Assembly (NCBI GenBank): GCA_023101725.1
Contig: JALJCO010001381.1
Span: forward strand, 1-64,000
Direction: 5' to 3'
Length of the DNA: 64,000 bases
Origin: Atherinomorus stipes
Taxonomy: Eukaryota > Chordata > Actinopteri > Atheriniformes > Atherinidae
In this document: piece after piece, positions 41,262-61,533 of the stretch
Layout: each line of letters opens with the position of its first letter
Numbering within the stretch: the first letter of the stretch is position 1
The notes under the pieces: generated by a model
The model's input: the letters and a program-made list of their open reading frames with translations, nothing else
Database searches by the model: none
Told to the model about the DNA's origin: nothing
Translations under genes and position numbers: made by a program

Positions 41262-43021
41262 TTAAATTAAATGAAAAATACTTTATTTATTCCAGAAGGG
41301 GAATTCAACATTGTAAAAAAGCTCACTTTTTTTTCTTTTTTTGTTTTTAACAATATAACATTTATATGAAATAATAACATAACAATAAATAAGTCAGTCA
41401 GTCAGTCTTGTTCTTCAGGGTGATGCTGCTGGCAGGAATGAATTTCTGTATCTCTCCGTCCTACAGTGAACCTGACGCAGCCTCCCACTGAACACACTCT
41501 GTTGATTCTTCACTGTGTTGTGGAGAGGATGGGAAGTGTCCTCCATCATCTTCATCAGCTTGTGCAGCATTCTTTTTTGAACGATCAGCTCCAGCGGCTC
41601 CAGAGTTCTCCCCAGCACAGAACCAGCTTTCTTGATCAGCTTGTTTAGTTTCTTCAAGTCTCTGGTTCTGATGCTGCTGCCCCAGCAGATGCTGCAAAGC
41701 TGATTGCACTTTCCACAACAGACTTGTAGAAGATCTGCAACATCTTGGTGCAGACGTTGAATGATCTCAGCTTCCTTAAGAAGTAGAGTCTGCTCTGACC
41801 TTTCTTGTAGATGTAGTCACTGTTGCATTTCCAATCGAGTCTGTTGTCCAGCTGAACTCCAGGTATTTGTAGTTCTCCACCACCTCCACCTCCTCTTCCA
41901 GGATGTAGACAGGACTATGCTGCTTATTCTTGCTCCTCCTGAAGTCAACAATCATCTCTTTAGTCTTGCTGGTATTTAAGATGAGCTGATTGTTACTGCA
42001 CCATTTCACAAACTGACTGACCAGTTCCCTGTACTCGGCTTCTTGTCCATCACTAATCCACCCCACAACTGCAGAGTCATCAGAGTATTTCTGCAGATGA
42101 CAGGATCAGAGTTGTACTGGAAGTCTGAGGTGTACAGTGTAAAGAGGAATGGTGACAGTACAGTCCCTTGTGGTGCTCCAGTGCTGCTGACCACTATCTC
42201 AGACACACAACCTTTCAGTCTCACAAACTGTGGTCTGTTTGTTAGGTAGTCGTAAATCCATGTGGTTGTGGAGGGATCCACCTGGAAGTTATGGAGCTTC
42301 TCACATAGCAAAGCAGGCTGAATAGTATTAAATGCACTTGAAAAATCAAAGAACATGACCCTCAAAGTGCTGCCTGACTGGTCCAGATGAGAGTGGGCTC
42401 TCTGAAGCAGGAAGATGATGGCGTCTTCAACCCCAAGCCCATTACGATATGCGAACTGTAATGGGTCCTGAAAGGTATTCACTTGCTTGTTGAGGTGAGC
42501 CAGTAAGAGTCTCTCCAGGACTTTCATGATGTGAGATGTCAGAGCAACTGGTCTGTAGTCATCTGGTTCTGGTCCTGGTTCTGGTTCTGGTCTGTGTCTT
42601 GGTTCTGCTGGTTGTGGTTTTTTAGGGACTGGAACAAGACAGGATGTTTTCCACAGCACAGGAACTCTGTTCTGTCTCAGGCTGGTGTTAAAAAGGTGCT
42701 GGAGAACCGGACATAGTTGTTCTGAGCAGGTCTTGAGAACTCTGGGACTGACACCATCTGGACCTGCAGCCTTGTTCCGGTTCAGTTTCTCTAGTTGTTT
42801 CTTGACCTGGTCACAGGAGACAGTCAGGCTGGAGGTGGAGACAGAGGAGGTCTCAGGATGTCCTGATGTGGAGACAGAGGAGGTCTCAGGATGTCCTGAT
42901 GTGGGGGGAGATGAGGCTGTGTTCAGGTCCATGACTGAGGTGCAGGGTGACAGAGTGGAGGTGGTGGGACAGGAAAGCTGTGGGCTCATGGAGGGTGTGT
43001 GGTGTGTTGGGTTGTCGGCAG
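41262..43021 (-). pseudogene. LINE reverse transcriptase half (Rex1/CR1-L2 type)
   Basis: The long minus frame 42989-42006 covers the start of the reverse transcriptase (RT): NKAAGPDGVSPRVLK, DDYRPVALTSHIMKVLERLL, DPLQFAYRNGLGVEDAI, FFDFSSAFNTIQPALL with the first catalytic Asp, and TGAPQGTVLSPFLFTLY. A frameshift near 42090-42100 moves the catalytic YSDD (42078-42092) into the frame that continues as DSAVVGWISDGQEAEYR and SKTKEMIVDFRR. Further frame changes follow before HPLHNTVKNQQSVF and YRNSFLPAA at the C-terminus. The 3' end carries CCAGAAGGGGAATTCAACAT in + sense near 41290, with TTTAATTTAATT-type tail. It is dead as an enzyme and lacks its endonuclease, which is probably the block 49869-51057. 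Confidence 0.9.

Positions 43022-44138: not shown

Positions 44139-44221
<83 letters not shown>
43980..44221. repeat. AT pentamer, (CA)n and (TA)n microsatellites
   Basis: TAATA/ATAAT pentamers lie at about 43978-44020, (CA)n at 44146-44169 and (TA)n at 44170-44223. The Tc1-like element that follows begins exactly in the TA run, as TA is its target. Confidence 0.95.
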
Positions 44222-44224
<3 letters not shown>

Positions 44225-45115
44225 TGGCTGGCCAAAAAAAAAGTCACAATCTGAATTAACTAAGCAAATAGGTAGGAGCCTCCTATTGGATAATTACTGA
44301 ATGGGCGATTATCTTTCAGCTGGCAACAAGTTATTTAACCCCAACTGGTGCAATGAGTTGCTTCTCATTTCCTAAACAACCATGTGGAAAGACACATCCG
44401 TGGTCGTGGAAAAGATGTTTGTCTGTCTGAGAAGGGTCAAATCATTGGCATCAAGAGGTGAAAACATCTAAGGAGATGCAGAAACTACTAAAACTGGGTT
44501 CAGAACAGTCCAACGCATTATGAAAAACTGGAAGGATAGTGGACCATTGTCTTCCAGGAAGAAATGTGGCCGGAAAGGCAGATGAAGTGATGCAGCATCA
44601 TGCCTAGTGCTACTGTACGAGCCTGTGGGGACAGTGTGATGATCTGGGGTTGCTGCAGTTGCTCAGGTCCAGGTTCAGCAACAGTATGAGCTCAGATAAT
44701 GAGGTCAGCTGATACCTGAATATACTGAATGAGCAGGTTATTCCATCAATGGATGTTTCTTTCCTGATGGCACGGCCATATTCCAAGATGACCGTGCCAG
44801 AATTTATCGGGCTCAGATTGTGAAAGATGGTTCAGGGATCATCAGACATCATTTTCACACATGGATTGGCCCCCACAGAGTCCAGACCTGAACCCCATTG
44901 AGAATCTTTGGGATGTGCTCTGGTCGACACTCAATCATCATCAAGATCTTGGTGAAAAATTGATGCAACAGGATGCAAATAAATCTGGTGACATTGCAGA
45001 AGCTTCTGGAAACACAGCAAATGCTGCCGCAATCAAAGCTAAAGATGGTCCAACCAAATGTTAAATGTTTGACCTTTTTTTGTTGGCGACTTCTTTTTTT
45101 GGCCGGGCAGTGTTA
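44222..45115 (+). pseudogene. Tc1-like transposon, internally deleted
   Basis: The ends are inverted: CTGGCTGGCCAAAAAAAAAG on the left and, in reverse complement, CACTGCCCGGCCAAAAAAAG on the right, each next to TA. Inside, fragments of a transposase can be read in several frames: an HTH region with QRIMKNWKDSG (about 44500), GDSVMIWGC (about 44630), [10 protein letters not shown] with the second catalytic Asp (about 44790), and [16 protein letters not shown] with the region of the third acidic residue (44873-44920). The stretch coding for the first Asp is missing and stops are frequent. It is inactive. Confidence 0.9.
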
Positions 45116-45340
45116 TATATGTATATATATCTATATATACACATACATACTGTACATATATAATTCATATTGTATATTTTCATGTCATTCAATTCATCAC
45201 AACCTCAGTTTAAAAGCTTTGAAGAACCTGAGGTGGCCCCGTTGCCAGGGATACAAGACACATGACCTCATCATCAAGATCAGAGGACTTGACCTGTCGC
45301 TATGGTGATCCTGGAACTCTTGATGCAACTTTGATGACAC
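45116..45340. other. Upstream region of the kinase gene
   Basis: It contains a TATATA-rich tract to about 45165 and then non-repetitive sequence leading to the heat-shock element. No exon was recognised. Confidence 0.4.
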
Positions 45341-45346
45341 AACAGA

Positions 45347-45361
45347 GTTCTAGAATGTTCA
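45347..45361 (+). promoter_or_regulatory. Perfect three-unit heat-shock element
   Basis: TTC TA GAA TG TTC at 45348-45360 matches the nTTCnnGAAnnTTCn consensus for HSF1 trimers without mismatch. It lies about 207-219 bp upstream of the start codon of the kinase-SGNH gene. A weak TATA-like TTTAAGAG follows at 45369-45376, which would place a start site near 45400 and give a leader of about 165 nt. Regulation by heat shock is inference. Confidence 0.55.
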
Positions 45362-45566
45362 GATACCTTTAAGAGACAGCAGGAGACAATTTTGAATCAG
45401 ACAGTTTTACCACAGCGGCCAGTTCAGACACTCATTGAGTTGAAGACGACACCGAACAAAACCTGCACATAAAATTGTCTACAGAGGGAAATATTTCCAG
45501 AATAACTGGATAATACTTCACCTATACAACACTCAACATTTCAATACAAGATTTCAACAGTGAAAG

Positions 45567-47627
45567 ATGACCAGCTATTACAAACAAATGGAGTTTCATT
45601 CTTCCTCTTTGGGAGATGAACTTGAACCCATTGGGGACTCCCTCGTCTCTCAGTCCTCTACCTACCTGATCCACTCAAAACTTGGTGAAGGCGCCTTTGG
45701 AAAAGTAGCCAAGTGTTACAAGGTAGCCACAAACGAAATTGTGGCTTGTAAGATCATCACGGCGAACGACATGACATTTGAGAGCCAGAATGAGTTGGAT
45801 GTTCTCAAGAGACTGAAGAACTTTGATGCAGACAGGTACAACTTTGTTAAGTTCAACGATGCGTTTATGTACAACAACCACGTTTGTATGGATTTTGAAA
45901 TGCTGGACATGAGTCTGTACGACATGATGATGAAGAGACCTGAACGCTCTTTCAGCGTGAATGAAATCCGGCCAATCCTGCACCAGGTGGCCACAACCCT
46001 TGAATTTCTACGGTCTCAAGACATCGTCCACACAGATCTGAAATCAGACAACATCATGCTGGTGGACCATGTAAAACAGCCACTGCAGGTCAAAGTGATT
46101 GACTTTGGTCTGGCCTGCACTTCAGCATATTTTGGACAGGTCTTGTACCTCCAGGCACTTGCTTACAGAGCACCAGAGGTCATCCTTGGACTTCCTTTTA
46201 CATCGGCCATTGACATGTGGGGTCTTGGCTGCATTGCTGCTGAATTGTTCCTGGGAGATCTGCTTTTCCCTGCAACCAGTGAATACAACATGCTTCAACA
46301 TATAATCCAGACACGAGGAGAGCTCCCACAAAAGCTTCTGAGGGAAGGCACCAGGACACAGAAGTTTTTTATCCAAAAGACAGACGGCGCATTTTGTAGA
46401 CCTAGATGGGTACTGATGGACCCCGACTGGTACGACGAGGAGGAACACACGGACATCAGTTCCATATGTCTGGATGATCTCCTGGCCTTGAAAATGCCCC
46501 TCCACAAAACAGAAGAAAACATGGCCGAATATGAAGACCTGAAGGACTTTTTTGAACTTCTAAAGAAGATGCTGGATGTGGATCCAGAAAAGCGCATCAC
46601 ACCGAGAGAACTCCTTCAGGATCCGTTCATGACCATGAGAAATGTCGAACACAGGAACCCCGACAGCTTCTATTTGATCTCTTGCTGTGACATGATGGAA
46701 GCTTGTCAAGGCCAGAACCTGGATGTAAAGATGTCCAGGTCCGATAACGATGGAAAGACGGCAGCCAAACGGATAGACAGTGATAGACAGAGACAGACAG
46801 ATAGACAGATACACAGAAACAGACAGACACAAAAGAGGCTCAGGCAGAATGATGCAGATGGACACAAACAAAGAAAAGGCAGACACAGACAGATTCACGG
46901 ACAGATAGAGACGCAGGCAGAAAGGCAGAGAGAGAAAGACAACACAAGTCCAGGAAGACAAAGACGTAGAGGAGAAGACGCTGAAGTCAAAGCTCTCTGG
47001 AAGGAGCAGGCCTGGAGATCTCAGCGTGACAGCAGGTCCTCACAAACTAGGAAGGTAAAACCCGCCACAAAGATCTGGCTCATTGGATCAAGTTACATCA
47101 GACGAGGAGAAGAAGCAGCCCGTCAGAAGTTCGGGGAAAACCTCGGCCTCAATGCCAAAGTGGAATGGTTTGGTAAAGGAGGCATGGGCTGGAGCGGCGT
47201 CCTTCCACGCTTTTACTCAGAGATGTCCACTCAGAGTCCCCCGGACATTTTAGTTGTCCACGCTGGAGGCAACGACCTGGGACTCACATCTGCAGCAGAG
47301 CTCACAGCAGCCATGCAAAGAGACCTGATGCAGCTTCACAGAGAGTTTCCACACATGAAAATCCTGCTTTCCAGCATCAACGAGCGTCAGGCGTGGAGGT
47401 ACGGACCAATCAAGAGAATCATCACCGACAGAAAGTTCGTTAACGCGAAGATGAGGAAGGCTGCCAAGGGCTTCGGAGGTGTGATAATCGAACATCCCTT
47501 CCTGAGACATTACAATGACACACTGTACCTGCCAGACGGAGTCCACTTCACTAGAAAAGGGAACCACGTCTTTACAAGCAGCATTCGTGCCGCCGTCAAA
47601 GAGACTCTAAAGCAAACGTCTCTGTGA
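45567..47627 (+). CDS. HIPK-like kinase fused to SGNH hydrolase domain
   Basis: This is a single uninterrupted frame of 686 codons, the only intact large gene in the window. Residues about 33-352 form a protein kinase domain of the HIPK/DYRK group. It has the glycine loop GEGAFG (40-45), VACK with Lys62, the helix-C Glu76, HTDLKSDN (155-162, where most kinases have HRD) with Asp157, DFG at 179-181, YRAPEVILGLPF around 200-211, and AIDMWGLGCIAAELFLG. The wording YLQ...YRAPE and ILGLPF is HIPK-like. Residues about 395-461 are a low-complexity Arg/Gln/Asp/Thr linker encoded by CAGA-type repeats. Residues about 497-686 form an SGNH/GDSL-type hydrolase domain: block I IGSSYI (Ser509 as probable nucleophile, usual Asp replaced by Ser508), block II GKGGMGW, block III HAGGND (565-570) and block V DGVH (657-660), so the catalytic residues are present. 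The ATG has an A at -3. No signal peptide or membrane segment; a cytoplasmic or nuclear protein is expected. No introns are needed. Function is unknown. Confidence 0.9.
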   Translation: MTSYYKQMEFHSSSLGDELEPIGDSLVSQSSTYLIHSKLGEGAFGKVAKCYKVATNEIVACKIITANDMTFESQNELDVLKRLKNFDADRYNFVKFNDAFMYNNHVCMDFEMLDMSLYDMMMKRPERSFSVNEIRPILHQVATTLEFLRSQDIVHTDLKSDNIMLVDHVKQPLQVKVIDFGLACTSAYFGQVLYLQALAYRAPEVILGLPFTSAIDMWGLGCIAAELFLGDLLFPATSEYNMLQHIIQTRGELPQKLLREGTRTQKFFIQKTDGAFCRPRWVLMDPDWYDEEEHTDISSICLDDLLALKMPLHKTEENMAEYEDLKDFFELLKKMLDVDPEKRITPRELLQDPFMTMRNVEHRNPDSFYLISCCDMMEACQGQNLDVKMSRSDNDGKTAAKRIDSDRQRQTDRQIHRNRQTQKRLRQNDADGHKQRKGRHRQIHGQIETQAERQREKDNTSPGRQRRRGEDAEVKALWKEQAWRSQRDSRSSQTRKVKPATKIWLIGSSYIRRGEEAARQKFGENLGLNAKVEWFGKGGMGWSGVLPRFYSEMSTQSPPDILVVHAGGNDLGLTSAAELTAAMQRDLMQLHREFPHMKILLSSINERQAWRYGPIKRIITDRKFVNAKMRKAAKGFGGVIIEHPFLRHYNDTLYLPDGVHFTRKGNHVFTSSIRAAVKETLKQTSL
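46770..46950 (+). repeat. CAGA-type simple repeat inside the coding frame
   Basis: GATAGACAG, AGACAGACAG and CACAGACAG words run through this part of the kinase-SGNH gene and encode the linker DRQRQTDRQIHRNRQTQKR. The period of four does not preserve codons, yet the frame stays open because CAGA repeats lack stops in this orientation. Confidence 0.85.
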
Positions 47628-47738
47628 AGCAAACTTCAGGTGTCCTCGGAGACACTGACTGGACAAAAGTCATCTACTGTAATTACTTTGGTTGGAAATA
47701 CTTTGTTTTTTTCAGTTAAATAGTTTTAGAAACTTTGT
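47628..47738 (+). other. 3' flank of the kinase-SGNH gene
   Basis: The frame closes with TGA at 47625-47627. No AATAAA is present before the microsatellite; the first one is at about 48389. The real 3' end is not determined. Confidence 0.5.
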
Positions 47739-48271
47739 TTGAACTTTTATTTATTATTATATTATTATTGTTATTGTTATTATTATTATTATTACTGTTG
47801 TTATAATTGTTATTATTATTATATTATCATTATTATTGTTAGCATTATTATTATTATATTATTAGTGTTAGTATATTTTATTATTATTATTATCATTATT
47901 GTTGTTATTGTTAAATATTATTATTATTACTGTTGTTATTATTGTTATTATTATATTATCATTATTATTGTTGTTAGCATTGTTATTATTATATTATTAG
48001 TGTTAGTATTATTATTATTATTATTATTATAATTATTGTTGTTTTTATTGTTAAAAATTATTATTATTATTGTTATTATTGTTATTATTATATTTATTAT
48101 TATTGTTAGCATTATTATTATTATATTATTAGTGTTAGTATTATTATTATTGTTAGTTTTAATATTATCATTATTATTATTATTGTAGTAGTTGTTGTTA
48201 TTATTGTTAGCAGTATTACTATTATTAGTGTTAGTAGTATTATTAATATTAGTATTATTATTATTAGTGTT

Positions 48272-48306
<35 letters not shown>

Positions 48307-48326
48307 CAACATTATTAATATTAACA
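47739..48326. repeat. (TTA)n microsatellite, ~590 bp
   Basis: A long impure TTA/TTG trinucleotide array keeps frames of poly(Leu/Ile/Tyr) or poly(Asn/Thr) open on both strands; none is a gene. It may have grown from the (ATT)n tail of a SINE such as that at 43095-43340. Confidence 0.97.
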
Positions 48327-48480
48327 TCAGCAAAACTAGCATTTTTCTTCACCTTGTCATGTATTATAAAATATAAAAAAATAATTCAATAAAAAAAATA
48401 CACAAAAAAACAATAAAGGCACTGGTATGGTACTCTCAGTAATGGGATGGGGTTCAATTCCCTGCGGTGCCCTTAAGCAT
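48327..48480. repeat. Direct repeat D, copy 1
   Basis: From AACATCAGCAAAACTAGC through TTCTTCACCTTGTCATGTAT to GGGATGGGGTTCAATTCCCT this matches 49331-49492 in order. The last part has a pol III B-box-like word (GGGGTTCAATTCC), suggesting a SINE-related unit following a TTA array in both copies. Confidence 0.85.
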
Positions 48481-48489
48481 ATGACATTC

Positions 48490-49125
48490 ACATGCTATAC
48501 AATAACAATAACAACTAGAAAATTTCTGAAGAAACACCACAGAGCAGATGAATCTTCACCACTGAAAAAGGGACAAAACTGTAATAAAAAGAAGGAATTA
48601 CAATAATCCAATCTGGAAGGAACAAAAGCATGGACTAGTTTTTCTGCCTCATTCTGGGAGAGGATGTTCCTAATTTTAGCAATAGTACATAGGTGGAAGA
48701 AGGTGGTTCTAGAAACCTGTTTTATATGTGAGCCAAAAGACAAATCCTGGTCAACAATGACTCCAAGATTCTTCACTGTAGTGCTGGAAGCCAAATTAAT
48801 GCATCCAGGTCAACTATAAAGCTAGATAATTTAGTCCTGAGTTTTTCAGGTCCAAAGACAACGGCATCGGTCTTGTCTGAATTTAGAAGCAGAAAATTCA
48901 GAGTCATCCAGGTCTTGATGTCACTAAGACATACAGTATTTGTAATCTAAAAAACTGATTGGTTCCATCAGACTTTATAGATACTGTACGTATATCTGAG
49001 TGTCGTCTTCATAACAATAAAAATTTATGCCATGTTGTCTGATGATATTACCAAAAGGAATCATATATAATGTGAAGAGAATTGGTCCGAGCACAGAACC
49101 CTGGGGAACTCAGGAAAGATGAAAA
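48490..49125 (-). pseudogene. L2-type LINE reverse transcriptase fragment
   Basis: On the minus strand, conserved RT blocks are readable in changing frames: [20 protein letters not shown] (near 49100), YEDDTQIY with the catalytic Asp pair (about 48997-49014), NLGVIVDQDLSFGSHIKQ (48770-48717) and EAEKLVHAFVPSRLDYCNS (about 48655-48600). The fragment lacks the endonuclease and is broken by frameshifts. It lies between two copies of repeat D, so it was inserted into, or duplicated along with, that unit. The clade call (L2) rests on the VPQGSVLGP and LVHAFVxSRLDYCN wording. Confidence 0.85.
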
Positions 49126-51057: not shown

Positions 51058-51190
51058 AAAGAAAAGGGTGGTCTACATTGATTGATACCTATTCCGCTCT
51101 CGACGGAGGTGGACGCCTTTCTCTCCTCTGTCCAGTCGACTCTCTGAGCCTCTGTCTACATAACTTTCTGAATCTGAAACAACAGCTACG

Positions 51191-51649
51191 ATGGATTTGG
51201 TCAACTGGTCTTTCAATGCAATTGATCAAATTTTTTCCACCCGGAGAGCGGGACAGGGTGACGCTCCTTGCCCCGACGTTACGCACCCGGCTGGATATGT
51301 GATTGACTCCTGGGGCAAATGGAAGATCATGCGTCTGTCGGTGCTGTCCATCGAGGTCGTTGAAGATCTCTACCTATTTGGATTTATGATAGCCGGGTTC
51401 CTGCTGATTGGTGTGGGCATTTTCCTGGTTTATCGCAAAGTTGGAGGGCTGCTGGCAGCTACTGGCACGCTGCCTGACATTTGTGTGGGGATGAGTCGTG
51501 CTATCAACACTCAGACTCTGGCGTTGCATGAGATTCATCGCAAGCTAGATGCCATTCAGGCCCAGCTTGGCACGCTGGCTGCGGTTCCGAACCCCGTCCG
51601 CGAAGTGAATACATCTGTGGAGAAGTTGGCACAGCTCCTGGAAAATTGA
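51191..51649 (+). CDS. 152-aa single-TM protein of unknown family
   Basis: The frame begins MDLVNWSFNAIDQIF with a good start context (ACGATGG) and ends KLAQLLEN. Residues about 53-75 (EDLYLFGFMIAGFLLIGVGI...) form one strong hydrophobic membrane segment followed by YRK. The N-terminal part (RRAGQGDA, CPDV, VIDSWGKWKIMRLSVLSIEVV) and the C-terminal part (SRAINTQTLALHEIHRKLDAIQAQLG) are soluble, the latter helical with heptad-like spacing that could be a coiled coil. I do not recognise a characterised family. It sits in an element with a LINE-type tail, so it may be a small transposon-borne protein. Part of the coding region is repeated in inverted orientation at 52165-52289 with two or three changes. 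Confidence 0.5.
   Translation: MDLVNWSFNAIDQIFSTRRAGQGDAPCPDVTHPAGYVIDSWGKWKIMRLSVLSIEVVEDLYLFGFMIAGFLLIGVGIFLVYRKVGGLLAATGTLPDICVGMSRAINTQTLALHEIHRKLDAIQAQLGTLAAVPNPVREVNTSVEKLAQLLEN
51437..51561. repeat. Left arm of 125-bp inverted repeat
   Basis: From AAAGTTGGAGGGCTGCTGGC to GATGCCATTCAGGC. The right arm is 52165-52289 and the spacer is 603 bp. It lies in the coding frame of the 152-aa protein. Confidence 0.93.
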
Positions 51650-52164
51650 CCCCTGATTCGGCTGATTGATGCTGCCATGGAGACCTGTTAAGGACTCAAG
51701 GCAGACACCACCACGTCTGAACTGTTTCAAAACATCTTCTGCTATCTGCTTTGGCGACCCTGAGGAGAGGCCTGTGTTTGGGTTAACACGGGCTGTCTCT
51801 GCAAACTCCCCAAGAAAGTTATGCGAATGGACTCTCAGCATCCCTCCCTGTTCCCTCCCCCGCACATCTCTCACGGGAAGTGGACCACCTGGCCAGCACC
51901 CCCAAGGCCACCATAACATCTGTGGACAGAGACTGGGTGTGAACTCAGGCGGGTTCACAGCCTGACACACACACACACATCCACGGACACACAAGATCCC
52001 TTACACACCCCCCTAAGACTCTCCGCTTCCATTGCCCCTCCTCCTTTCCCGCCTCTCTGGACACACTGGGCCTGGAGGGTGCCTGAGCGTCCCCGCTCAG
52101 CTGTCTGGAGGGGATACACCTCCTTTCTGCCCACAGTGTGTCTTTCATGTTGTGATTGCTAGAT

Positions 52165-59837: not shown

Positions 59838-61533
59838 GTACTGTCTTCTTCTGCTTATCCGGGATTGGGTCGCGGGGGCAGCTGCCTAAGCAGGGAAGCC
59901 CAGACTTCCCTCACCCCGGCCACAGCCGCCAGCTCATCCGGGGGGATCCCAAGGCGTTCCCAGGCCAGCTGGGAGACGTAGTCCCTCCAGCGTGTCCTGG
60001 GTCTCCCCCAGGGTCTGGTCCCGGTGGGACGTGCCTGGAACACCTCACCAGGGAGGCGTCCAGGAGGCATCCTAACCAGATGCCCGAGCCACCTCATCTG
60101 GCTCCTCTCTATACGGAGGAGCAGCGGCTCTACTTTGAGTCCCTCCAGGATGACCAAGCTCCTCCCCCTATCTCTAAGGGAGAGCCCGGCCACCCTGCGG
60201 AGGAAACTCATTTCGGCCGCTTGTACCCGCGATCTCGTTCTTTCGGTCATGACCCACAGCTCATGGCCATAGGTGAGGGTAGGAACGTAGATGGACCGGT
60301 AAATCGAGAGCTTCACCTTCTGGCTCAGCTCCTTCCGGGCGGATCTCATCCACCCCAGGGGCCCGGCCACCGAGGAGCTTTTTGACTACCTCGGCGAGCT
60401 CAGCCCCCGTGACAGGGAAGTCCACCCCTGAGTCCCCAAACTCTGCTTCCTCCTCGGAAGACGTGTTGGTGGGATTGAGGAGTTCTTCGAAGTATTCCCT
60501 CCACCGGCCCACGACGTCCTGAGTCGAGGTCAGCAGCCCACCATCCCCACTGTACATAGTGTTGACGGTGCACTGCTTCCCCCTCCTGAGCCGCCGGATG
60601 GTGGACCAGAAACGCCTCGAAGCCGTCCGGAAGTCGTTCTCCATGGCCTCACCGAACTCCTCCCATGTCCGAGTTTTTGCCTCAGTGACCGCCAGAGCCG
60701 CGCTCCGCTTGGCCCGCCGATACCTGTCAGCTGCCTCAGGAGTCCCACAGGCCAGGAAGGCCCGGTAGGACTCCTTCAGTCCCACAGGCCAGGAAGGCCC
60801 GGTAGGACTCCTTCTTCAGCTTGACGGCATCCCTCACCGCTGGTGTCCACAAGCGAGTTCGGGGGTTACCGCAACGACAGGCACCGACAACCTTACGGCC
60901 ACAGCTCCGACTAGCAGCCTCAGCAATAGAGGTGCGGAACATAGCCCATTCCGACTCGATGTCCCCCACCTCCCTCGGAACATGGGTGAAGCTCTCCCGG
61001 AGGTGGGAGTTAAAGCTCTCTCTGACAGGAGACTCAGCCAGACGTTCCCAGCAGACCCTCAAAACACGTTTGGGCCTGCCAGGTCTGACCGGCAACCTCC
61101 CCCACCATCTGAGCCCACTCACCACCAGGTGGTGATCAGTGGACAGCTCCGCCCCTCTCTTCACCCGAGTGTCCAGGACAAGGGGCCGCAAGTCCGATGA
61201 CACGACTACGAAGTCGATCATGGAACTGCGGCCTAAGGTGTCCTGATGCCAGGTGTAAATGTGGACACTCTTGTGCCTGAACATGGTGTTTGTTATTGAC
61301 AATCCATGACGAGCACAGAAGTCCAACAACAAAACACCACTCGGGTTCAGATCAGGGGGGCCGTTCCTCCCGATCACGCCCCTCCAGGTCTCACTGTCGT
61401 TGCCCACGTGAACATTGAAGTCCCCCAGCAGAACAATGGAGTCCCCGGGGGGCGCGCTTTCCAACACGCCGTCCAAGGACTCCAGAAAGGGTGGGTACTC
61501 TGAACTGCCGTTCGGTGCATAGGCACAAACAAC
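59838..61533 (-). pseudogene. RTE-clade LINE, reverse transcriptase core deleted
   Basis: Minus frames encode the C-terminal part of an endonuclease ([48 protein letters not shown] with the conserved SDH-like motif). The linker to the RT follows (RRLRRGKQCTVNTMYSGDGG, GAELAEVVKKLLGGRAPGVD). At about 60342-60355, after DEIRPE, the frame jumps directly to KELSQKVKLSIYRSIYVPTL, HELWVMTERTRSRVQAAEMS and GRPRTRWRDYVSQLAWERLG at the C-terminus. The whole catalytic RT core is therefore missing. A 37-bp tandem duplication at 60744-60817 shifts the frame. The 5' end is truncated inside the endonuclease near 61533 and the 3' end carries GGATAAGCAGAAGAAGACAG in reverse complement. Confidence 0.9.
60744..60817. 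repeat. 37-bp tandem duplication in the RTE LINE
   Basis: CCCACAGGCCAGGAAGGCCC plus 17 bp occurs at 60744-60780 and again at 60781-60817 without change. Being one more than a multiple of three, it shifts the reading frame. Confidence 0.97.

What the first reader, a model, noticed from the sequence alone, without database searches (positions are those of the whole stretch)
45567..47627. Kinase-SGNH hydrolase fusion in one exon
A HIPK-family kinase domain and an SGNH/GDSL-type hydrolase domain, each with catalytic motifs in place, are read from one 686-codon frame without introns. SGNH domains are known as extra domains in some retroelements (Ngaro/DIRS-type elements and CR1 ORF1), so the C-terminus may be a domesticated transposon domain. 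I do not know of a described kinase with this architecture. A long open frame in a region where every other coding block is broken suggests selection.
Basis: partly seen in the sequence, partly recalled or inferred. Interest (0 to 1): 0.9.

Follow-up and report, generated by a model that had tools for sequence, protein, structure and literature searches.

The report
Fish kinase fused to a lipase-like domain
In a bony-fish genome, a kinase and a lipase-like enzyme are encoded as one uninterrupted gene that belongs to a multi-copy family under selection, in which the lipase-like half appears to have been attached to different kinases more than once.

Summary
The 686-codon frame at 45567-47627 is real. 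Its halves are an intact HIPK-like kinase and an SGNH domain with all catalytic residues. It is neither a chance read-through nor unique: the window's own genome holds at least 14 open frames that join a kinase (or its C-lobe) to this SGNH domain. Five, the window's included, are near-identical; one has three kinases plus SGNH in 1561 codons. Six database proteins have the same order; those with organism names are fish. Both halves show purifying selection (window versus class A3 relatives: dN/dS 0.21-0.35 kinase, 0.18-0.26 SGNH), and the linker stays in frame through 66-73 substitutions and 76 codons of indels. The halves have different histories: the kinase groups with SGNH-free tandem kinases, while the SGNH nests inside a family joined to degenerate pseudokinases. 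The junction lies near 46945, at the edge of an AGAC-type repeat. Best reading: DNA-level recombination moved an SGNH module onto a new, intact HIPK-like kinase. I found no good evidence for a transposon origin of SGNH; its predicted fold is closest to PAF-acetylhydrolase Ib. Expression and function are untested. Nine literature searches found no description.

The parts
45199..45566 (+). 5' unit (promoter and/or 5' UTR) shared by class A and class A3 loci; homology between loci starts about 360-370 nt before the ATG
   Evidence: blastn of upstream regions: C5384, C656 and C794 align with the window from about -358/-368 to the ATG
45567..47627 (+). Single-exon ORF, 686 aa, HIPK-like kinase + linker + SGNH hydrolase
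45600..46724 (+). Kinase module; repeat unit of the tandem-kinase genes (classes A3 and C)
   Evidence: nucleotide homology of full units to class C (74-77%) ends at 46712-46721 and to class A3 (91-92%) at 46724; Pkinase residues 35-355; intact K62, D157, D179
46725..46944 (+). Basic, low-confidence linker with degenerate AGAC/GATAGACA repeat; shared with class A3, not alignable to class B
   Evidence: tandem repeats 46771-46831; residues 431-494 pLDDT under 50; in-frame evolution
46939..46952 (+). Apparent fusion point between kinase/linker and SGNH module, beside a shared AACAACA
   Evidence: identity of the window to six class B copies: 0.38-0.45 in 46850-46909, 0.57-0.70 in 46910-46969, 0.75-0.92 in 46970-47029
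46945..47627 (+). SGNH module coding part (PAF-AH Ib-like predicted fold), shared with class B genes
   Evidence: model of residues 490-686 pLDDT 90.2, pTM 0.87
47091..47093 (+). Presumed nucleophile Ser509 codon (GSS)
   Evidence: sequence, alignment; role recalled
47535..47546 (+). Asp657 to His660 codons (DGVH block)
   Evidence: sequence, alignment; role recalled
47628..48534 (+). 3' flank, including the TTA repeat (47751-48323), shared in part with other loci at DNA level; the stretch past 48416 is shared with both class A3 loci and 4 of 6 class B loci compared

Best explanation
The protein joins an apparently competent HIPK-like kinase, through a basic and probably unstructured linker, to an apparently competent PAF-acetylhydrolase-like SGNH esterase. 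SHOWN: the fused frame, its recurrence, selection on both halves, a homology break near 46945, and conflicting trees for the two halves. INFERRED: (1) in an ancestor of classes A and A3, DNA-level recombination at a short match beside an AGAC-type repeat placed the 3' half of a class B gene (pseudokinase + SGNH) behind an intact HIPK-like kinase; (2) the product is one polypeptide in which the SGNH domain hydrolyses an acyl or acetyl ester and the kinase regulates or targets it, by acting on the linker or on partners; (3) rapid duplication, kinase-array expansion and module exchange suggest a role in conflict (immune or germline) rather than housekeeping. Step 3 is the weakest.
For: Frame and domains. 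75 matches in the own genome at E <= 0.001, a lower bound since 65 of 2348 first-look candidates were scored. 14 open frames with kinase sequence and SGNH: 5 class A, 2 class A3, 7 class B; three more frames (C3541:25957, C131:12418, C1552:25783) join SGNH to a shorter kinase piece. Six fused proteins among the 29. dN/dS: window kinase vs four class A3 kinases 0.21-0.35; SGNH vs two class A3 0.18-0.26, vs 11 class B domains 0.24-0.43. Linker vs class A3: 66-73 substitutions of 315 nt and 76 gap codons, no stop; chance of no stop from the substitutions alone 0.017-0.026. The four other intact class A copies have no frame-breaking coding indel; the 110 nt after the stop show 1-, 4-, 5- or 9-nt indels. 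Kinase tree: A+A3 beside SGNH-free class C (100/99), away from B + P0002/P0004/P0129 (100/99); AU test against A+A3+B as one clade p 1.6e-11 and 1.5e-6. SGNH tree: A and A3 nested in own-genome class B (100/99); all class B SGNH as one clade p 0.013. Homology break. Shared 3' flank.
Against: No transcript, protein or enzyme evidence for this genome. The AU groups were named after the trees were seen. A+A3 SGNH as one clade is not rejected (p 0.079), so a later exchange between A and C5633 rests on support 96/94 and dS 0.07-0.09 versus 0.27-0.38 to class A3. dN/dS is between paralogues that may undergo gene conversion; near-identical copies give few changes, and one kinase pair has a ratio above 1 (1 synonymous, 4 nonsynonymous). 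Kinase dN/dS against class C is 0.43-0.55. The stop estimate uses frames that were picked because they match, so it is somewhat biased. The 1-nt and 4-nt differences after the stop are shared by several copies, so they are few events. Three class A copies are broken or partial (C4400:56603, C131, C3541:25957) and further fragments lie on C1084, C1129, C5051, C5719 and C335. Of 30 SGNH domains from the database only 15 keep all five catalytic positions.
Confidence: 0.7

Rival explanations
1. One ancient kinase-SGNH fusion, with later loss of SGNH in many kinase lineages and gene conversion homogenising SGNH halves within this genome; no new fusion in A/A3.
For: Fused proteins exist in several fish (P0001, P0002, P0003, P0004, P0018, P0129). 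SGNH-only proteins P0063 and P0125 keep, by eye, kinase remnants, so kinase loss or skipping from a fused gene occurs. Exchange between A and C5633 is likely.
Against: A/A3 kinases sit among kinases without an SGNH label at several successive nodes, needing many losses; their 3' flanks were not checked for SGNH. A and A3 share a linker unlike class B and a homology break near 46945.
Confidence: 0.2
2. The SGNH half is a domesticated retroelement or Helitron-carried domain.
For: texim SGNH genes in fish are reported near Helitrons (PMC4021074, parts 1 and 2 of 5 and passages read). The zebrafish LINE ORF1 esterase 4c1b appears among distant matches (E 0.1; Foldseek rank 43). Copies are dispersed over several contigs.
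Against: No RT-labelled protein among 29 relatives; of four window ORFs scanned, the two with RT or endonuclease hits lie at 42006-42989 and 60736-61476, not next to the gene; PAF-AH Ib is closer in fold. Helitron sequences were not sought.
Confidence: 0.08
3. The frame is a decaying pseudogene family or assembly artefact with no product.
For: Several copies are broken; no expression data.
Against: Same junction at separate loci; 14 open fused frames; purifying selection on both halves; 20 of 20 own-genome SGNH domains of 165 or more residues keep all five catalytic positions (shorter pieces on C1084, C335, C4400 and C5051 were left out).
Confidence: 0.05

Closest known systems
HIPK1-3 (homeodomain-interacting protein kinases)
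   Same: Best sequence match of the kinase half (HIPK2); a Tyr in the activation loop (LYLQALAYRAPE) aligns with that of the canonical HIPK rows (TYLQSRYYRAPE; its role is recalled)
   Different: Separate fast-evolving fish clade; carries SGNH; multi-copy; coding part in one exon
Expanded fish HIPK genes (yellow goosefish, PMC7729161, one passage read)
   Same: HIPK family expansion in a fish genome
   Different: That passage mentions neither SGNH nor tandem kinase domains
texim / teximY SGNH genes (PMC4021074, parts 1 and 2 of 5 and passages read)
   Same: Multicopy fish SGNH hydrolase genes, reported as related to PAF-AH and CR1 domains
   Different: teximYa/b have 15 exons, are Helitron-associated, and no fused kinase is described in what I read (the word kinase occurs once, for amhr2). 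Texim sequence was not compared here
PAF-acetylhydrolase Ib catalytic subunits
   Different: 17-18% identity; several bacterial GDSL esterases lie within 1 Z unit
Tandem kinase proteins of plant immunity (recalled)
   Same: Several kinase or pseudokinase domains in one chain, sometimes with an added domain
   Different: Unrelated kinase family and kingdom; an analogy only

Membership tests
HIPK-like kinase | Kinase domain nearest to HIPK among solved structures | tested here: met
   HIPK2 5.7e-86, ahead of DYRK1A 3.7e-50
HIPK-like kinase | Catalytic Lys, HxD Asp, DFG intact | tested here: met
Canonical HIPK orthologue | Groups with canonical HIPKs in a tree | tested here: not met
   Separated from rows named HIPK1 and HIPK3 at 100/100; no row named canonical HIPK2 or HIPK4 was used as such
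SGNH hydrolase superfamily | Ser, Gly, Asn, His (Asp) blocks in order | tested here: met
   PF13472 above its curated cut-off (39.4 vs 32.9 bits)
SGNH hydrolase superfamily | SGNH fold | tested here: met
   predicted model only
PAF-acetylhydrolase Ib | Sequence-level relationship or PAF hydrolysis | tested here: inconclusive
   Fold only, 17-18% identity, tied with bacterial esterases; activity not testable here
CR1/L2 retroelement ORF1 esterase | Associated with reverse transcriptase or ORF1 relatives | tested here: inconclusive
   No RT label among 29 relatives; 4c1b only a distant match
texim | Sequence orthology to texim SGNH | not tested
   No texim sequence in hand; no hit is named texim
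texim | Multi-exon coding region (15 exons in teximYa/b) | tested here: not met
   Single-exon coding frame; exon count from PMC4021074

The most novel reading that the evidence does not exclude
Percomorph fishes carry a mobile SGNH esterase module that has been joined repeatedly, perhaps three times, to different HIPK-like kinases and pseudokinases, including chains with several tandem kinases, giving a rapidly evolving class of two-enzyme proteins, perhaps acting in immune or germline conflict as tandem kinase proteins do in plants.
Probability: 0.35. Interest if true: 0.8.

Novelty: new variant of a known kind. Interest (0 to 1): 0.62.

Why it matters
It documents a two-enzyme architecture (protein kinase + SGNH esterase) not found in nine literature searches, in a vertebrate, and in a family large enough to compare intact-kinase, pseudokinase, tandem-kinase and SGNH-only versions. 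It offers a natural experiment on how domain fusions arise (a repeat-edge junction shared by several loci) and a concrete biochemical question: whether a kinase regulates a tethered ester hydrolase. One fused database protein (P0129) is simply annotated HIPK1, so fish HIPK expansions reported in genome papers may include such genes.

Tried and rejected
Retroposed SGNH insertion (module ending at a poly(A) site): early alignments ended near the AATAAA at about 48388, but the window shares the stretch from 48416 on with both class A3 loci and with 4 of 6 class B loci compared (not found in C6629; the C5633 piece ended too early), so DNA-level recombination fits better. Missing N-lobe exon of class B: sought in the loci and genome-wide with P0002; class B matches start at residue 106-108 (85, with stops, in C5633 and C335), so I read the N-lobe as lost. 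Viral source: one scan of viral contigs gave no relative; the 50 rows shown from the viral structure library (of 929) are mostly kinases. Heat-shock-element idea: a perfect element occurs 219 nt before the ATG in 5 of 6 class A regions but in none of the 2 class A3, 6 class B and 5 class C regions; post hoc, chance 0-2.5% per region in shuffles. Cis-substrate idea ([ST]P-basic motifs in linkers): 16 of 23 proteins have at least one, 8 of 23 exceed shuffles at p < 0.05, but the window linker and the two other class A/A3 linkers scored have none. Literature: nine searches found no kinase-SGNH fusion; most subscription papers and all bioRxiv preprints are outside the library. The genome search with HIPK1 (P0033) was asked seven times and never answered, so intron loss relative to canonical HIPKs is untested. 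Rows dropped before counts: P0137 and SGNH pieces under the length limits; 56 of 94 database kinase segments were not used in the first tree or were thinned further in the second (searches use 38 and fewer).

Full report
OBSERVATION. The frame 45567-47627 (+) starts with ATG and has 686 codons. Pfam finds Pkinase at residues 35-355 (E 1.9e-49) and Lipase_GDSL_2 at 519-666 (E 1.1e-9). The nearest solved kinase is HIPK2 (E 5.7e-86), well ahead of DYRK1A (3.7e-50). The kinase and SGNH motifs are in place. The linker holds degenerate AGAC/GATAGACA repeats (46771-46831) and is predicted with low confidence (residues 431-494 below pLDDT 50).

FAMILY IN THE SAME GENOME. The window is 1-64000 of contig C713 in a 1.18 Gb assembly of 7656 contigs. 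A protein search gave 75 matches at E <= 0.001, a lower bound because 65 of 2348 first-look candidates were scored. I fetched most of the better places and mapped domains on open frames. The class names are mine. Class A (one kinase + SGNH): five intact frames (C713, two on C4400, one on C3541, one on C794; the four others are 97-99% identical to the window protein); three more copies are broken or partial (C4400:56603, C131, C3541:25957). Class A3: C5384:118786 has three kinases plus SGNH in one 1561-codon frame; C656 has two kinases plus SGNH, the first kinase split by a frame break and the SGNH end shortened. Class B: a kinase lacking the N-lobe and the DFG motif, a long linker and SGNH; seven open frames (C1552, C3955, C5384:295684, C5759, C6629, two on C5633) and further split ones. 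Class C: tandem kinases without SGNH, up to five full kinases and part of a sixth in one 2530-codon frame (C5900), also C4335, C4063, C5599 and C2423; searches list no SGNH match on these five contigs.

OTHER FISH. Of three database searches, one search listed 120 of 471 matches, (SGNH region) 13, and (SGNH-family profile, 7992 candidates scored) 29. The organism names shown are fish, apart from six clusters that also list Mustela putorius; that they are percomorphs is recalled. The SGNH-only proteins P0063 and P0125 begin, by eye, with remnants of the kinase N-terminus, which points to kinase loss or skipping from a fused gene. P0002, P0003, P0004 and P0129 all have Arg in place of the VAIK Lys, and the six class B kinases scored lack the N-lobe and DFG, so that lineage looks like pseudokinase + SGNH. 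Class A instead pairs SGNH with an intact kinase, as P0001 does.

SELECTION. Nei-Gojobori dN/dS: window kinase versus four class A3 kinases 0.21-0.35; versus class C 0.43-0.55; SGNH versus two class A3 domains 0.18-0.26; versus four C5633 domains 0.29-0.33; versus seven other class B domains 0.24-0.43. Among near-identical class A copies changes are few and one kinase pair exceeds 1. Of own-genome SGNH domains with at least 165 aligned residues, 20 of 20 keep the five catalytic positions; 15 of 30 database domains do. The linker: against class A3 it differs by 66-73 of 315 aligned nucleotides and by 76 gap codons with no stop; 5.4% of single changes in it are nonsense, so the chance of no stop from those substitutions alone is 0.017-0.026. 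In the four other intact class A copies there is one coding indel (42 nt, in frame, C794), while the 110 nt after the stop show 1-, 4-, 5- or 9-nt indels, some shared between copies. This argues for translation through both domains.

TWO HISTORIES. Kinase trees (quick, 71 rows; careful, 44 rows) put A+A3 beside class C (100/99), then with P0005 and P0009, which bear no SGNH label, and place class B with P0002/P0004/P0129 (100/99); P0001 lies elsewhere. The AU test is against A+A3+B as one clade (p 1.6e-11; 1.5e-6) and against all SGNH-bearing kinases as one clade (p 2.9e-33; 4.4e-6); the groups were named after the trees were seen. The SGNH tree (35 rows) nests A and A3 inside the own-genome class B clade (100/99), with A next to C5633 (96/94). 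All class B SGNH as one clade has p 0.013; A+A3 as one clade p 0.079, not rejected. Nucleotide alignments agree: the window shares about 45600-46721 with class C and about 46939-48330 with class B. At the junction A and A3 share the repeat-like linker up to about 46945, where similarity to class B begins beside a shared AACAACA. A and C5633 also share an 18-nt gap absent from the other class B and A3 copies aligned, so a later exchange between them is likely; its direction is open.

HOW THE FUSION AROSE. The window shares 3' flanking DNA past the polyadenylation-signal region with both class A3 loci and 4 of 6 class B loci compared. Class A and A3 share a 5' unit of about 365 nt. C794 shows homology to the window over 45209-49111 and otherwise only short repeats in the 9 kb and 7 kb of flank fetched. 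This fits DNA duplication and recombination better than insertion of a retroposed cDNA.

NOVELTY. Nine literature searches gave no kinase-SGNH fusion. Closest in print: texim SGNH genes (PMC4021074, parts 1 and 2 of 5 and passages read) and a note of HIPK expansion in goosefish (PMC7729161, one passage read); the marine medaka paper lists Hipk1 among families unique to that species (PMC7493909, one passage read). The library holds open-licence papers only, so absence is not proof.

Noticed in passing
window 51191-51649 (+): 152-codon ORF with a hydrophobic stretch (by eye) and no Pfam match; the surrounding 51128-52159 is 94% identical to C4400:52445-53479, between two class A copies, so it seems to travel with the duplicated block.
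   Followed up: partly
L019, L023, L027, L028 (C5900:5284-14784): A 2530-codon open frame with five full HIPK-like kinase domains and part of a sixth, without SGNH; a striking tandem-kinase gene in its own right.
   Followed up: partly
window 45348-45360: Perfect heat-shock-element-like TTCTAGAATGTTC 219 nt before the ATG, perfect in 5 of 6 class A loci and in neither class A3 locus; the window and one C4400 copy have a second perfect match at -568 or -566.
   Followed up: partly
window 48416-48534: Short segment found in the 3' flanks of class A3 and 4 of 6 class B loci compared, and again near 49.35-49.49 kb; it looks like a tRNA-derived SINE (recalled, not tested).
   Followed up: no
window 44200-45110: Upstream stretch repeated near SGNH genes on C335 and C5633 (87-91%) and on C1084 (96%); reads like a decayed Tc1-type transposon (by eye).
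   Followed up: no
P0129, P0088, P0095: SGNH domains with lost catalytic positions: P0129 lacks the nucleophile Ser and the His, P0088 and P0095 lack the nucleophile Ser, so some members may be pseudo-hydrolases.
   Followed up: no
window 42006-42989 (-) and 60736-61476 (-): Reverse transcriptase and endonuclease-type fragments, as of LINE elements (LINE label recalled).
   Followed up: no
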